From positions 1 to 34,922 of the forward strand of contig JAFQZN010000006.1 in NCBI GenBank assembly GCA_017405865.1: a stretch of 34,922 nucleotides of DNA. The letters run 5' to 3'. Shown here piece after piece: positions 5,481 to 9,586 of the stretch. Under the pieces are notes generated by a model. That model worked only from the letters and a program-made list of their open reading frames with translations, made no database searches and was not told where the DNA came from. This stretch comes from Oscillospiraceae bacterium. GTDB taxonomy: Bacteria > Bacillota > Clostridia > Oscillospirales > Oscillospiraceae. Positions within the stretch are counted from its first letter, which is position 1. Each line of letters starts with the position of its first letter. Position numbers and translations under genes: made by a program.

Positions 5481-5567
5481 TGGTACACGGCGGGAGACTC
5501 GAACTCCCATGCCCTTGCGGGCACCAGTTCCTGAGACTGGCATGTCTACCGATTCCACCAGCCGTGT
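5481..5567 (-). tRNA. tRNA-Leu (anticodon CAG)
   Basis: On the minus strand the acceptor stem ACACGGC pairs with GCCGTGT, followed by discriminator A and an encoded CCA. The anticodon stem CCAGT/ACTGG encloses loop CTCAGGA, giving CAG. A long variable arm (type II) and GGTTCGA-like T arm (GAGTTCGAGTC) fit leucine tRNA. Confidence 0.95.
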
Positions 5568-5578
5568 GTTTTGTGGGT

Positions 5579-5604
5579 CCCCATCGAAGCGTGGTTCGAT
5601 GGGG
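5579..5604. other. Perfect hairpin between two tRNA-Leu genes
   Basis: ccccatcgaa and ttcgatgggg form a perfect 10-bp stem around gcgtgg. It lies in the 123-bp spacer between the two leucine tRNAs and has no U-run on the minus strand, so it may be a processing or spacer structure rather than a terminator. Confidence 0.5.
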
Positions 5605-5690
5605 AAAAGGAGGAGGGAGCCTGCGGATATGCAGTTTTCGCGGCTCTTACGCAAACCGCGGAAACGGAATGCAGCAGGCTTCTTCCGACG

Positions 5691-5777
5691 TGGTACGCAG
5701 AGCGAGAGTCGAACTCGCAAGCCCGTTATGGGCGTCGGCCCCTCAGACCGATGTGTCTACCATTTCACCATCTGCGC
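5691..5777 (-). tRNA. tRNA-Leu (anticodon GAG)
   Basis: Minus strand: acceptor GCGCAGA pairs with TCTGCGT (one G-U), followed by A and encoded CCA. The anticodon stem TCGGT/GCCGA encloses CTGAGGG, giving GAG. A type II variable arm is present. It lies 123 bp upstream of tRNA-Leu(CAG) on the same strand, so the two are probably co-transcribed. Confidence 0.95.
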
Positions 5778-6130: not shown

Positions 6131-6280
6131 GGAAACATCTCCAAAACCGCGCAGTAACATCGGCGGCGAGATAAACTTATGGTCTGAAAAAAGCCGGCAA
6201 GCCCTGCGCAAAATACCCATGTGCTTTTCACATCAAGTCTGTCCTTCGTTTCTAAACGTCTCTGCGGAAGCAATTTCTAC

Positions 6281-6309
6281 TTGACATACGTCAAGCAATA
6301 TCGTACAAT
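6281..6309 (+). promoter_or_regulatory. Promoter with operator-like palindrome for the HipA-type module
   Basis: TTGACA (6281-6286), a 17-nt spacer and TACAAT (6304-6309). The -35 is embedded in the inverted repeat ttgac-atac-gtcaa (6281-6294), well placed for autorepression by the HTH partner protein. Confidence 0.8.
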
Positions 6310-6327
6310 CGTTTTGAGGTGATTTTC

Positions 6328-7149
6328 ATGGAAACAAAGGTGATTCGTGAAAAGCAGGATCTGACGTATCTCTCCTGGAGCAGGATGCGGCATTCTTCCG
6401 GAACCGCGGGCAGTTTTTTGAAAGCGGAGTCCGAAGTCTCCGGTCGAAAGGTCTACTACAAGCTCTCCAAGTACGATAATGTCCACGGGGTGGTCGGGCA
6501 CGAGTGCGTCAACGAGCTGATCGTCGACCGTCTTCTGACAATCCTCGGTGTGGAGCATCTGCATTACCGGCTGATCCATGCGGATATCGTTGTTCGGGAA
6601 ACTCCGCAGGAAGTCTGGCTTTGCGCCTCGGAGGACTTCAAGGAGCGCGGCGAGGACAAGGTCGCTCTGGATATGTATTACGAAGCGGAGCATCTGCCCG
6701 GCGAGACGGCGATGGATTTTTGCCTGCGTATGGGATGGAGAGATTATATTTGGCAGATGTTTGTCGTGGATTATTTGATCCTGAATCGAGACCGGCACGG
6801 AGCAAACATCGAGGTGCTCCGGAACAAGCGAAAGCGCACGGTCCGGCTGGCGCCCCTGTTCGATCACGGCGTGTCGCTTCTGTTCAGCTGCCATAGCGAT
6901 GAGAGCGTCGGGCAATTTGGTGTCATGAAGGATCTTCCGGTCCAGTCCTATCTCGGCAGCCGCTCTGCATGGGAGAATCTGTCGCTGATCCCGAAGGCGG
7001 AGCTGCCGAAGCTGCATCCGCTTCAGGAGGAAGATAGGGCAGTCCTGTTTGCTGATCTGGACGGCGTCATTTCCGACAGGCTTCAGAACGCAATCTGGGA
7101 TATGCTATGGAAAAGGTGGAGTGCGTATGAAGATTTTTGCAATTCGTGA
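6328..7149 (+). CDS. HipA-like (HipT-type) serine/threonine kinase, short form
   Basis: 273 residues from the ATG at 6328, with GAGGTG 6 nt upstream; a GTG at 6319 is less likely. The kinase loop NRDRHGAN (about 153-160, predicted catalytic Asp155) and the metal-binding FDHG (about 178-181) are those of HipA/HipT kinases. The N-terminus has SSGTAGSFLKA, a plausible nucleotide-binding loop, and YYKLSKYD. The usual HipA N-terminal subdomain 1 is missing; a matching segment is found instead in the next gene, which overlaps by 23 nt. HipA kinases phosphorylate targets such as aminoacyl-tRNA synthetases and stop growth. The target here is unknown. Toxin role is inferred from family and pairing. 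Confidence 0.85.
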   Translation: METKVIREKQDLTYLSWSRMRHSSGTAGSFLKAESEVSGRKVYYKLSKYDNVHGVVGHECVNELIVDRLLTILGVEHLHYRLIHADIVVRETPQEVWLCASEDFKERGEDKVALDMYYEAEHLPGETAMDFCLRMGWRDYIWQMFVVDYLILNRDRHGANIEVLRNKRKRTVRLAPLFDHGVSLLFSCHSDESVGQFGVMKDLPVQSYLGSRSAWENLSLIPKAELPKLHPLQEEDRAVLFADLDGVISDRLQNAIWDMLWKRWSAYEDFCNS

Positions 7150-7945
7150 CGGCGCGGATCCTGCCGCTCGGGATCTTGCGTATCTGCTCTATTACGAAGG
7201 AGCAAAGAAGTTCTATATAGAGCTTCCCGATGATGCCGACCCGTGGGAGACGCCTCTGCTTCTGTCTTCGTTCGCAAAACAGGGCGTGCATTCCGTCAAT
7301 TCCTATTGGAGCGAGCTTTGGGTACGGCAGCGGATCGTTCCGCCCGACCGTCAGAACATTCAGCAGATCCTGAAGGAGCTTCACTTGAAGGAATATGACG
7401 AATTCCCGCTTCTGTTGAATGCGATGGGTCGCTGCGCGCAGGACGATTACTATCTCGCCCCTCTTTCCGAAGGGCAGCTCCCGCAGGAGATTGAAAAGCG
7501 TTTCGAGCTGCGCGTCGAGGACGTTGTCCCCCTGCAGGACGGTCAGCTTTTGGTCTTTTTCCGAAACGGGAAGGTCAAGAAGTGCGACCTCTATGCATAT
7601 TTTCGAAAGCATCCGGAATTCGGCGTTCTGCAGAAGAATCCGGCGTATTTCCGGAATGTGCAGATGCAGACCGGAGGGTACGGCGTTGCGTGGGGCGAAA
7701 GGCTTATGATTGCGGATCACGAACTGTATTCCATTGGCAAGGCAATCCCTCTGGCCGCAGAGGATTTCAGGCTCTTTGTGACGGAGCGGATCGTAAACGC
7801 GCAGGAAGCCGCGGAGCTGCTTGGCTGTTCCCGTCAATATATCAACGAACTGGTCAAGACAGGAAAACTGACTCCGATCAAGGCAAGCGAGAAGAATACG
7901 ATGTTTCTCAAAAGTGATCTGCTCCGACGTCTGTGGATGTCGTAG
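7127..7945 (+). CDS. Antitoxin-like partner: HipA-N1-like domain + DUF2442 + HTH
   Basis: 272 residues from the ATG at 7127, with AGGTGGAG upstream. Residues 1-115 resemble the HipA N-terminal subdomain: LWVRQRIVPPDRQNIQQIL, then DEFPLLLNAMGRCAQD, like the 'LPEG..R..L...LL...G.DCAGA' pattern of HipA/HipS. Residues about 126-205 look like a DUF2442 domain (VEDVVPLQDGQLLVFFRNG and FGVAWGERLMIADHELY-like elements). Residues about 222-270 are an excisionase/MerR-type HTH (NAQEAAELLGCSRQYINELV). By analogy with HipBST, where HipS neutralises HipT and HipB binds DNA, this one protein may do both jobs. It lies downstream of the kinase, the reverse of classical hipBA order. Domain calls are by eye. 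Confidence 0.7.
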   Translation: MKIFAIRDGADPAARDLAYLLYYEGAKKFYIELPDDADPWETPLLLSSFAKQGVHSVNSYWSELWVRQRIVPPDRQNIQQILKELHLKEYDEFPLLLNAMGRCAQDDYYLAPLSEGQLPQEIEKRFELRVEDVVPLQDGQLLVFFRNGKVKKCDLYAYFRKHPEFGVLQKNPAYFRNVQMQTGGYGVAWGERLMIADHELYSIGKAIPLAAEDFRLFVTERIVNAQEAAELLGCSRQYINELVKTGKLTPIKASEKNTMFLKSDLLRRLWMS

Positions 7946-7963
7946 CAGCCGCAAGTCATCATC

Positions 7964-7995
7964 ATGCGGGAGCTGCCCGAAAGCAGCTCCCGCAT
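7964..7995. terminator. Hairpin terminator between convergent genes
   Basis: A perfect 13-bp stem (atgcgggagctgc / gcagctcccgcat) with loop ccgaaa, 19 nt after the antitoxin stop and 20 nt after the pilin-tail stop on the other strand. The U-run is weak in both directions. Confidence 0.7.
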
Positions 7996-8014: not shown

Positions 8015-8194
8015 TTACTTGCTCTGCGCGGACTTCTTTCTGCGAGTGACCAGTACGATCACAACGGCGGCCGAGGCAGCCATCAAAAGAATCCCGTAGA
8101 CGCTGTAGCGCCAAACGCCGTTGTCACCGGTCTGTGGCAGGTCGAAGCCCTTGGTGTTCACGACCGTCATCGGGATCATCGCGTTGACTGATCC
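8015..8194 (-). pseudogene. C-terminal fragment of an LPxTG-anchored pilin/surface protein
   Basis: The frame reads MTVVNTKGFDLPQTGDNG, followed by a hydrophobic helix (YSVYGILLMAASAAVVIVLV) and a basic tail TRRKKSAQSK before TAA. This is the classic cell-wall sorting signal of class C sortase pilins, where the tail is usually preceded by 'V.NTKGF'. Upstream of about 8190 the frame is no longer pilin-like; the DNA there belongs to the ArdA-like gene in another frame. It therefore lacks start, signal peptide and pilin domains and is a relic of the locus that also left the sortase fragment. Confidence 0.75.
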
Positions 8195-9011
8195 ATTCCT
8201 GAGCAACGTCTTCGCAGTCGTTGCAGCCCGGATAGAATTCAAACTCGTCAATATGGTCTGCCAGACAAATGAGGGACTTGCTGTCGGTAACTCCGGCGTA
8301 CTCGATAACAGCTTCGTAGGTTTGCAGGTCTTCCATATAGGGAAATGCTGCAGCAAAGGCATTCAGGGCGTGAAGTCCTTCTTTCTGAAGCACGGTATCG
8401 AAGATCTCATCCCACGGTCGCCCGTAGCGGCAGGCTTCGATCTTGAATACGGCGTCAGCGCCGCGCTCATCCAACTGCACACAGGCAGAGGAGCAGTCCC
8501 GCTCGCTCAGCGGAAACGTGAATACTTCGGTTTCACCGTCATATGCGGCAGAGACAACAAGACGAATATTGGGATTGTGCTCATACAGTCGAAGCGCATC
8601 TGCGAGCTTTGGGTTCTCCTTCGTTTCCTCATTTTTAGCTGGTTCCCGCTTGTTTTGGAGCAGTTGCTTTGCTTCATCCAGATAGCCATCCAGCGAAGAG
8701 TACCGGTCGGCGATTAAACCGTACCGCAGGTGAGATTGAATCTCCGGTGCGGAATGGTTCAGCACGATCATGCTGCCGTTTGCGTCCGCAAGAGATCGTT
8801 CCGGTGTGAGAAGCGTGAGGAGGTGCGCCTCCTCAGGGCTGCCGGCGTACAACTTCACGCGAATGGGATTGCTGTCTTCGTCCGCCAGCAGGATGTCCTC
8901 CGGAATGATCTGAATACCGATGGAGCTGAGTTTGCTTTGCAGATCCATCGTGCCGGTCGGAAGCTCGACAACCAGCGTATTATTGCCGTATCGGATCACG
9001 GCGCCTAACAT
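8124..9011 (-). CDS. ArdA-like antirestriction protein, 3' end replaced
   Basis: 295 codons from the ATG at 9011 (GGAGG 8 nt upstream). The segment near residue 255, LICLADHIDEFEFYPGCNDCEDVAQEWIS, resembles ArdA-type proteins of Firmicutes conjugative elements, where a run of the form 'Y..IPG..D.EDLGRY' follows a short helix. The N-terminal 150 residues (AVIRYGNNTLVVELPTG, IRVKLYAGSPEEAHLL) match nothing I can name with certainty. After QEWIS the reading frame runs out of frame through the pilin tail and gains the unrelated end RDDPDDGREHQGLRPATDR, so the last ~20 residues are an artefact of a DNA junction near 8190. ArdA proteins mimic DNA and block type I restriction. Function of this truncated form is doubtful. 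Confidence 0.6.
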   Translation of the reverse strand: MLGAVIRYGNNTLVVELPTGTMDLQSKLSSIGIQIIPEDILLADEDSNPIRVKLYAGSPEEAHLLTLLTPERSLADANGSMIVLNHSAPEIQSHLRYGLIADRYSSLDGYLDEAKQLLQNKREPAKNEETKENPKLADALRLYEHNPNIRLVVSAAYDGETEVFTFPLSERDCSSACVQLDERGADAVFKIEACRYGRPWDEIFDTVLQKEGLHALNAFAAAFPYMEDLQTYEAVIEYAGVTDSKSLICLADHIDEFEFYPGCNDCEDVAQEWISQRDDPDDGREHQGLRPATDR

Positions 9012-9059
9012 AGTTTTTTCCTCCGTTTCTTTTGAAAGTGATTCTGCATAGGAATAGAA

Positions 9060-9105
9060 AAAGCCCCGGCCGTTTTGTGAAATCAATCCAAAACGACCGG
9101 GGCTT
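9060..9105 (-). terminator. Strong intrinsic terminator upstream of the ArdA-like gene
   Basis: A 17-bp stem (9061-9077 with 9089-9105, one G-T) is followed on the minus strand by a T-run. No gene precedes it on that strand for 400 bp, so it probably ended the transcript of a gene now lost, or acts as an attenuator for the ArdA-like gene. Confidence 0.75.
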
Positions 9106-9501: not shown

Positions 9502-9586
9502 TGGTGCGGGCATGGGGACTTGAACCCCAACGGATCGCTCCATAGGAACCTAAATCCTACATGTCTGCCAATTCCATCATGCCCGC
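9502..9586 (-). tRNA. tRNA-Leu (anticodon TAG)
   Basis: Minus strand: acceptor GCGGGCA pairs with TGCCCGC, then A and encoded CCA. The anticodon stem TAGGA/TCCTA encloses TTTAGGT, giving TAG. The T arm is GGGGTTCAAGTCCCC. Its 3' end is duplicated at 9324-9344. Confidence 0.95.

What the first reader, a model, noticed from the sequence alone, without database searches (positions are those of the whole stretch)
6281..7995. Split HipA module: kinase plus a partner fusing N1-like, DUF2442 and HTH parts
The 273-residue kinase keeps NRDRHGAN and FDHG but lacks the HipA N-terminal subdomain. That subdomain seems to reappear in the overlapping downstream gene, joined to DUF2442 and an excisionase-like HTH. 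In HipBST the N1 unit (HipS) is a separate antitoxin and HipB binds DNA. Here one protein could do both, and the gene order is reversed. DUF2442 as the middle piece has no role I know of.
Basis: partly seen in the sequence, partly recalled or inferred. Interest (0 to 1): 0.72.

Follow-up and report, generated by a model that had tools for sequence, protein, structure and literature searches.

The report
Kinase operon with a chimeric antitoxin
A bacterium of the Clostridia carries a two-gene module in which a HipA-type kinase, probably a growth-stopping toxin, is followed by a partner that joins parts of two known kinds of antitoxin and a DNA-binding end, with a matching site at the module's own promoter, so that one protein could both restrain the kinase and control the operon.

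Summary
A 273-aa HipA-type kinase without N-terminal subdomain (6328-7149) overlaps by 23 nt a 272-aa partner (7127-7945). The pair recurs in other Clostridia, kinase first in every intact pair seen. Partner residues 1-122 belong to the HipS/HipA-N1 family by intermediates (94.8% to HipN over 42 residues; 99.5% to stand-alone N1 proteins); the direct match to HipA N1 is insignificant. DUF2442 (131-202) is the antitoxin domain of published DUF4160/DUF2442 toxin-antitoxin pairs such as dhiTA, so it has a known role; its relatives here also end in an HTH, of another Pfam family. A palindrome, CTTGACATACGTCAAG, covers the -35 box and is single in the 2.08 Mb genome. Its family form is at the promoter of 18/18 fused loci (most used to define it) and 12/12 hold-out fused loci, but 0/16 and 0/20 non-fused loci. 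Kinase-first order with an N1-bearing partner is known (hipIN, hipJS); the N1-DUF2442-HTH fusion was not found in the papers searched. Verdict: new variant of a known kind.

The parts
6280..6295 (.). palindromic operator-like site CTTGACATACGTCAAG over the -35 box
   Evidence: only match of CTTGWCRTAYGWCAAG in the 2.08 Mb genome; family form TTGwC-N4-GwCAA
6281..6309 (+). sigma-70-type promoter TTGACA-N17-TACAAT
   Evidence: read; -10-like sequence after the site in relatives
6316..6322 (+). Shine-Dalgarno-like GAGGTGA of the kinase gene
   Evidence: read
6328..7149 (+). HipA-type kinase without N-subdomain 1, 273 aa (Gly-rich loop 6394-6411, NRDRHGAN 6784-6807, FDHG 6859-6870)
7127..7945 (+). 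chimeric partner, presumed antitoxin and autorepressor, 272 aa
7127..7492 (+). HipS/HipA-N1-like domain (residues 1-122)
   Evidence: homology by intermediates; Couple_hipA in relatives
7517..7732 (+). DUF2442 domain (residues 131-202), DhiA-type
7799..7933 (+). HTH_17 / excisionase-like DNA-binding domain (residues 225-269)
7966..7993 (+). hairpin with 11-bp stem after the partner, terminator-like (no long T run)
   Evidence: read, not scored

Best explanation
A two-gene type II toxin-antitoxin module of the HipA kinase superfamily. Promoter TTGACA-N17-TACAAT drives the kinase (presumed toxin, a core-only Ser/Thr kinase) and, through an overlapping gene, a chimeric antitoxin. The N-terminal HipS/N1-like domain is expected to dock on the kinase lobe from which N1 is missing and hold it inactive. 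The C-terminal half, a DUF2442 domain of the same descent as the antitoxins of DUF4160 toxins followed by an HTH, is expected to dimerise and bind the palindrome over the -35 box, shutting off the operon while antitoxin is in excess. Shown by computation: gene layout, domain relationships, conservation, and the link between the palindrome and the fusion. Inferred: kinase activity, toxicity, neutralisation, dimerisation, DNA binding, and the trigger that frees the kinase.
For: NRDRH-x-AN and FDHG are invariant in 5 aligned kinases, one from the N1-only locus L007; the Gly-rich loop SSGTAG is invariant in the 5 kinases of fused pairs but not in L007. Partner N1 domain (14 rows): 94.8% to HipN N1 (3 rows; 42 residues), 99.5% to stand-alone N1 proteins (12 rows); 20 shuffles per target stayed at or under 3.7%; stand-alone to HipN 99.5%, 25 shuffles at most 0.7%. 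HipN-type L046, L049 and L102 match Couple_hipA over cut-off, L045 below it; 4 of 20 members of alignment A6 match it at E <= 1. DUF2442 domain: 99.4% to stand-alone DUF2442. In 21 of 28 stand-alone DUF2442 loci an upstream gene was picked out, and all 21 are DUF4160. DUF4160/DUF2442 = dhiTA: toxin gene first, antitoxin lowers promoter activity (PMC8198452, passages); the second ORF neutralises the first in Thermus (PMC12724237, passages). Palindrome: 18/18 fused loci against 0/16 others, hold-out 12/12 against 0/20; single in own genome. Where doubled (15 loci) the spacing is 32-33, 41-43 or 52 bp, about 3, 4 and 5 helical turns. Purifying selection on both genes.
Against: The fused N1 domain alone gives no significant match to HipA/HipS N1 (0.8%, where one of 25 shuffles reached 12.1%; 0.7% to E. 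coli HipA) and no PDB hit to HipS or HipA; Pfam does not call it Couple_hipA. N1 regions of the single-chain kinases and of the partners encoded before their kinases do not match that HipA/HipS profile either (0.1% and 0.3%). The stand-alone N1 set holds near relatives of both ends of the chain, so 94.8% over 42 residues is the safer figure. The HTH here (HTH_17) and that of stand-alone DUF2442 proteins (HTH_59) are different Pfam families; HTH against HTH gives 3.5%. The inhibitory Trp65 of E. coli HipS (PMC10627512, passages) seems to have no Trp in its place here (Q76 in the alignment, weak there). A kinase inside the fused clade (L035/L090) lives with an N1-only partner, so DUF2442-HTH is dispensable there. 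No structure model, no toxicity data.
Confidence: 0.72

Rival explanations
1. Anti-phage abortive-infection module: same parts, but the purpose is defence. A phage product displaces or destroys the partner, or competes for DUF2442, freeing the kinase.
For: Kinase matches PADLOC phage-defence-candidate PDC-M03A (E 9.8e-11, residues 127-192) and the partner N1 region PDC-M03B (E 5.7e-5, residues 69-126). PDC-M03 looks like hipIN, since the L046 kinase and partner match it at 2.8e-129 and 3.3e-100. Relatives lie on 3 IMG/VR contigs: one intact pair (L091/L093), one partner at a contig end (L092), one deleted form (L094); the last two are beside terminase genes. The window copy sits between tRNA-Leu genes in a stretch with no match in G662 of the same genus. 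PMC8262856 proposes such a role for hipIN.
Against: PADLOC matches are partial and to a candidate, not a proven system; being on mobile DNA fits plain addiction as well.
Confidence: 0.35
2. Dual antitoxin: the DUF2442 part still neutralises DUF4160 toxins in trans, so one protein guards against two toxin families.
For: DUF2442 domain recognisable and under selection; DUF2442 alone neutralises DUF4160 in Thermus.
Against: 16 of 26 genomes with the fusion, own genome included, have no DUF4160 match at E <= 0.001; some of these assemblies are incomplete.
Confidence: 0.1
3. Not a toxin module: a signalling kinase with a fused regulator that controls its own operon.
For: No toxicity data; CtkA, the only PDB sequence hit, is recalled as a secreted kinase rather than a bacterial toxin-antitoxin toxin.
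Against: Patchy spread in changing neighbourhoods including a plasmid and phage-like contigs, decayed copies, and two antitoxin-type domains in the partner.
Confidence: 0.15

Closest known systems
hipIN (HipI kinase + HipN; apparently PADLOC PDC-M03)
   Same: core-only kinase first, downstream partner starting with a HipS/N1-like domain and ending in a putative nucleic-acid-binding domain
   Different: HipN ends in HIRAN; here DUF2442 + HTH_17 and a palindromic site at the promoter
hipJS (HipJ + HipS)
   Same: core-only kinase followed by an N1-like partner
   Different: HipS alone, no DNA-binding part; the N1-only loci L007 and L035/L090 have this layout and lack the palindrome
hipBST
   Same: core-only kinase, separate N1 unit as antitoxin, an HTH unit as regulator
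   Different: three genes with the kinase last; here two genes, kinase first, N1 and HTH in one chain, and no Trp in the place of Trp65 in a weak alignment
dhiTA (DUF4160/DUF2442)
   Same: DUF2442 domain of the same family; toxin gene first; antitoxin represses its promoter; Clostridia relatives also carry an HTH after DUF2442
   Different: the DUF4160 toxin is replaced by a HipA-type kinase, an N1-like domain is added in front, and the HTH is HTH_17 rather than HTH_59

Membership tests
HipA-type kinase superfamily (Pfam HipA_C) | Gly-rich loop, catalytic and Mg-binding motifs in order | tested here: met
   HipA_C E 3.6e-4 but below cut-off; CtkA E 5.6e-8 by profile
HipA-type kinase superfamily (Pfam HipA_C) | kinase activity | not testable with these tools
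   -
hipIN / hipJS type module | kinase without N1, partner gene downstream | tested here: met
hipIN / hipJS type module | HipS/N1-like domain in the partner | tested here: met
   through intermediates only; direct match to HipA/HipS N1 insignificant
hipIN | C-terminal HIRAN domain | tested here: not met
   DUF2442 and HTH_17 instead
hipBST | three genes in order B-S-T | tested here: not met
hipBST | HipS Trp65 wedge in the kinase active site | tested here: inconclusive
   the PEGW loop of HipS-type proteins aligns with Q76, low alignment confidence; E. coli HipS itself was not fetched
dhiTA | DUF2442 antitoxin domain | tested here: met
dhiTA | DUF4160 toxin next to it | tested here: not met
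   no DUF4160 match in own genome
type II toxin-antitoxin | autoregulation by the antitoxin at the promoter | tested here: inconclusive
   candidate site found, binding not testable here
type II toxin-antitoxin | toxicity and its neutralisation | not testable with these tools
   -

The most novel reading that the evidence does not exclude
Two unrelated antitoxin families were spliced into one protein: a HipS-type kinase inhibitor and a DhiA-type DUF2442 domain with a DNA-binding end. The DUF2442 part is not a passive linker but keeps its protein-binding face, so that a DUF4160-like or phage-borne ligand can pull the antitoxin off both the kinase and the operator. That would make DUF2442 the sensor that arms a HipA-type kinase.
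Probability: 0.15. Interest if true: 0.8.

Novelty: new variant of a known kind. Interest (0 to 1): 0.52.

Why it matters
It suggests that the HipS/N1 inhibitor domain is traded between DNA-binding units (HIRAN, XRE-type HTH, resolvase-type HTH, and now DUF2442-HTH), and that two toxin-antitoxin families of different descent can merge at the antitoxin. The palindrome that goes with the fusion gives a cheap test of autoregulation, and a plasmid copy in Pseudobutyrivibrio xylanivorans MA3014 (pNP95, bovine rumen), where the genes carry only the name hypothetical protein, points to a source for experiments.

Tried and rejected
Structure prediction of partner and kinase: tool switched off, so no fold search. 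PDB sequence searches with the N1 profiles and the whole partner gave no HipS, HipA or DUF2442 entry. A first HipA-N1 profile was built with wrong pieces in it (at least one row was not HipA N1) and is discarded; one search replaces it, with 13 of the 21 Couple_hipA loci plus E. coli HipA. The viral scan with the single partner sequence found nothing; the alignments found 2 loci each. That the site was taken over from DUF4160 operons is not supported: with up to 2 mismatches, no locus other than the fused ones had it at a promoter; L008 has a 2-mismatch match inside another reading frame. That the partner's W65 is the equivalent of HipS Trp65 was dropped: the HipS-type loop aligns 11 residues further on. 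That the whole DUF2442-HTH unit was inherited in one piece is open: the alignment ends inside the HTH, and the two HTHs belong to different Pfam families. The comparison with G662 showed only that the fetched stretch left of about 9640 does not match.

Rows dropped before counts: L092 (contig ends before the kinase), L077, L117/L036/L089 and L120 (decayed, no kinase found) were not counted as intact fused loci; L098, L060, L080, L006, L099 and the like repeat loci already counted. L094 (kinase core deleted) was counted among the 18. The pattern TTGwC-N4-GwCAA was written after 15 of those 18 had been looked at; L093, L094 and L095 were new to it. Of the 35 loci, 1 is a repeat, 12 are intact fused pairs, 2 decayed fused ones and 20 others. 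In one search, L075 has one match of the pattern elsewhere in its locus. Of the 45 genomes with a match, loci were given for the 30 best places outside those already held; weaker matches were not inspected. The L118 site is a looser palindrome that still fits the pattern.

Full report
What is there. The window is contig C81 of a 2.08 Mb genome. Its closest named relatives are metagenome-assembled Clostridia, two of them labelled Oscillospiraceae from goat reticulum and buffalo rumen. At 6328-7149 lies a 273-aa kinase and at 7127-7945, overlapping by 23 nt, a 272-aa partner. [quoted passage not shown] Pfam gives HipA_C at E 3.6e-4, under its cut-off, and DUF2442 and HTH_17 in the partner, both over cut-off. 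CtkA is the only PDB sequence match of the kinase. Own genome has no other match to HipA_C or DUF2442 at E <= 0.001.

Is it a unit. Complete pairs were found in L001 (98%), L002 (78%), L003 (64%) and G229 (62%). Full-length fused partners: 2 of 245 genomes of the order, 7 of 200 of the family, 7 of 391 of the class and at least 14 of 200 of family f52. In 398 genomes across the phylum, 9 had a match to the N1 profile and the fusion was in two, own included, both of the same class. A plasmid copy (32% identity, residues 20-265, no clear start codon seen) is in Pseudobutyrivibrio xylanivorans pNP95, the genes named hypothetical protein. Three IMG/VR contigs hold relatives: an intact pair, a partner at a contig end, and a deleted form; the last two are next to terminase genes. 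In every intact pair seen the kinase gene comes first. Both genes are under purifying selection (rough because dS is near saturation).

What the N-terminal domain is. Profiles were compared with hhalign. Fused N1 to HipN N1: 94.8%, over 42 residues. Fused N1 to stand-alone N1 proteins, most of them found beside HipA-type kinases: 99.5%. Stand-alone N1 to HipN N1: 99.5%. Fused N1 to the N1 region of single-chain kinases: 95.3%, over 50 residues. Shuffled columns stayed at or under 3.7% for the fused profile and 0.7% for stand-alone against HipN. The stand-alone set of 12 includes near relatives of both ends of this chain, so the direct 94.8% is the safer figure. L046, L049 and L102 (HipN-type, with HIRAN) match Couple_hipA over cut-off in a region that overlaps the N1 hit; L045 is below cut-off; 4 of 20 proteins in alignment A6 match it, best E 2.1e-7. 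Against 14 HipA/HipS N1 rows (13 of the 21 loci and E. coli HipA) the fused domain alone gives 0.8%, stand-alone 70%, fused plus stand-alone 59%, with HipN added 84%, HipN alone 88%; shuffles of the combined sets reached at most 1.7%, of the fused set 12.1%. N1 of single-chain kinases and of partners encoded before the kinase gave 0.1% and 0.3%. So membership in the HipS/N1 family is by intermediates, not by a direct match.

What the C-terminal half is. DUF2442 against stand-alone DUF2442 (14 against 16 rows): 99.4%. With the HTH included the match is 99.3%, 30 shuffles at most 1.4%, and runs from DUF2442 into the first part of the HTH; 32% identity over 118 residues to one of them. HTH against HTH gives only 3.5%, and Pfam puts them in different families, HTH_17 here and HTH_59 in the three stand-alone proteins scanned. 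So the architecture DUF2442 + HTH is shared, and the descent of the DUF2442 part is clear; the HTH may have been exchanged. In 21 of 28 stand-alone loci an upstream gene was picked out, and all 21 are DUF4160. DUF4160/DUF2442 pairs are published toxin-antitoxin systems: dhiTA of Dickeya dadantii, toxin gene first, the antitoxin lowering promoter activity (PMC8198452, passages), and a Thermus plasmid pair whose second ORF neutralises the first (PMC12724237, passages). The remark that DUF2442 has no known role is therefore out of date. In 16 of 26 genomes with the fusion no DUF4160 was found, so the DUF2442 part does not seem to need one.

The operator. CTTGACATACGTCAAG at 6280-6295 covers the -35 box of TTGACA-N17-TACAAT. 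It is the only match of CTTGWCRTAYGWCAAG in the genome. The family form TTGwC-N4-GwCAA was upstream of the kinase in 18 of 18 fused loci, 15 of which had been seen before the pattern was written, and in 0 of 16 non-fused Hip-type loci. As a hold-out, all 12 new intact fused pairs had it (L105-L115, L118); the 20 other new loci and 2 decayed ones did not have it on the strand scanned. Close relatives are among these loci, so independent lineages are fewer. Fifteen loci have two copies, spaced 32-33, 41-43 or 52 bp, close to 3, 4 and 5 turns of DNA. The kinase of L035/L090 falls inside the fused clade (long branch) but has an N1-only partner and no palindrome. L116 and L119, whose N1 partner frames are cut by a stop and show no DUF2442, have none either. 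HTH and site are lost together in these cases.

How it most likely works. The kinase is the toxin; the N1-like domain holds it inactive; the DUF2442-HTH half dimerises and represses. HipS in E. coli inhibits by pushing Trp65 into the HipT active site (PMC10627512, passages). HipS-type proteins of the class have a PEGW loop that aligns with residues 73-76 of the partner, where R75, Q76 and N77 are invariant and there is no Trp; that the PEGW Trp is Trp65 is my inference, and the alignment is weak. Inhibition here may use other residues. Target, trigger and toxicity are unknown.

What is known. Gerdes et al. 2021 (PMC8262856; abstract and the whole results section read) list ten gene organisations. 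Kinase-first modules with HipS-like partners are hipIN (HipS-like + HIRAN) and hipJS. None has DUF2442. Full-text searches for HipA with DUF2442, DUF2442 with antitoxin, DUF4160 with DUF2442 and HipS-like/HipN/hipJS/hipIN terms showed no paper with this fusion; the listings were scanned and five papers opened; most subscription papers are not in that library. PADLOC's candidate PDC-M03 looks like hipIN, and the present kinase and partner match its models in part. A search for papers on PDC-M03 found none that names it.

Wider picture. In the same survey the N1-like domain stood alone after the kinase, before HIRAN, after XRE-type or resolvase-type HTH domains with the kinase gene following, after an AbrB/MazE-like stretch (L074, below Pfam's cut-off; L026 and L044 by eye only), and inside single chains XRE-HTH + N1 + kinase. 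The window's partner adds DUF2442-HTH to this list.

Noticed in passing
L094 4001-4513: In-frame open frame joining the kinase's first 85 residues to the DUF2442-HTH end of the partner; kinase core and N1 are missing, two promoter palindromes kept; lies before terminase genes on an IMG/VR contig, while L092 from the same metagenome has an intact partner before like terminase genes. Could be a natural deletion or a misassembly.
   Followed up: partly
L048 649-2022, L051 1117-2511, L053 1117-2511, L128 1093-2526: Single chains of about 460-477 aa with an XRE-type HTH, an N1-like domain and a HipA-type kinase: HipB, HipS and HipT parts in one protein.
   Followed up: partly
L075 1081-1683: Resolvase-type HTH_7 fused to an N1-like domain before a HipA-type kinase; may bear on the gamma-delta-resolvase-like HipP of hipMP.
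   Followed up: no
L071, L072: DUF2442 followed by what reads like an XRE-type HTH (by eye), after DUF4160, so DUF2442 may be paired with more than one HTH type.
   Followed up: no
L077 3510-4010: Decayed DUF2442-HTH remnant of the same family near what reads like a large serine recombinase gene, in a genome that also has an intact pair.
   Followed up: partly
window 5481-5777 and 9502-9586: Three tRNA-Leu genes flank the stretch that holds the module (two left, one right); G662 of the same genus has no match left of about 9640.
   Followed up: partly
window 8015-9086 (-): Two overlapping frames, one with an LPXTG-type anchor motif and one without Pfam match: perhaps a decayed surface-protein gene.
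   Followed up: no
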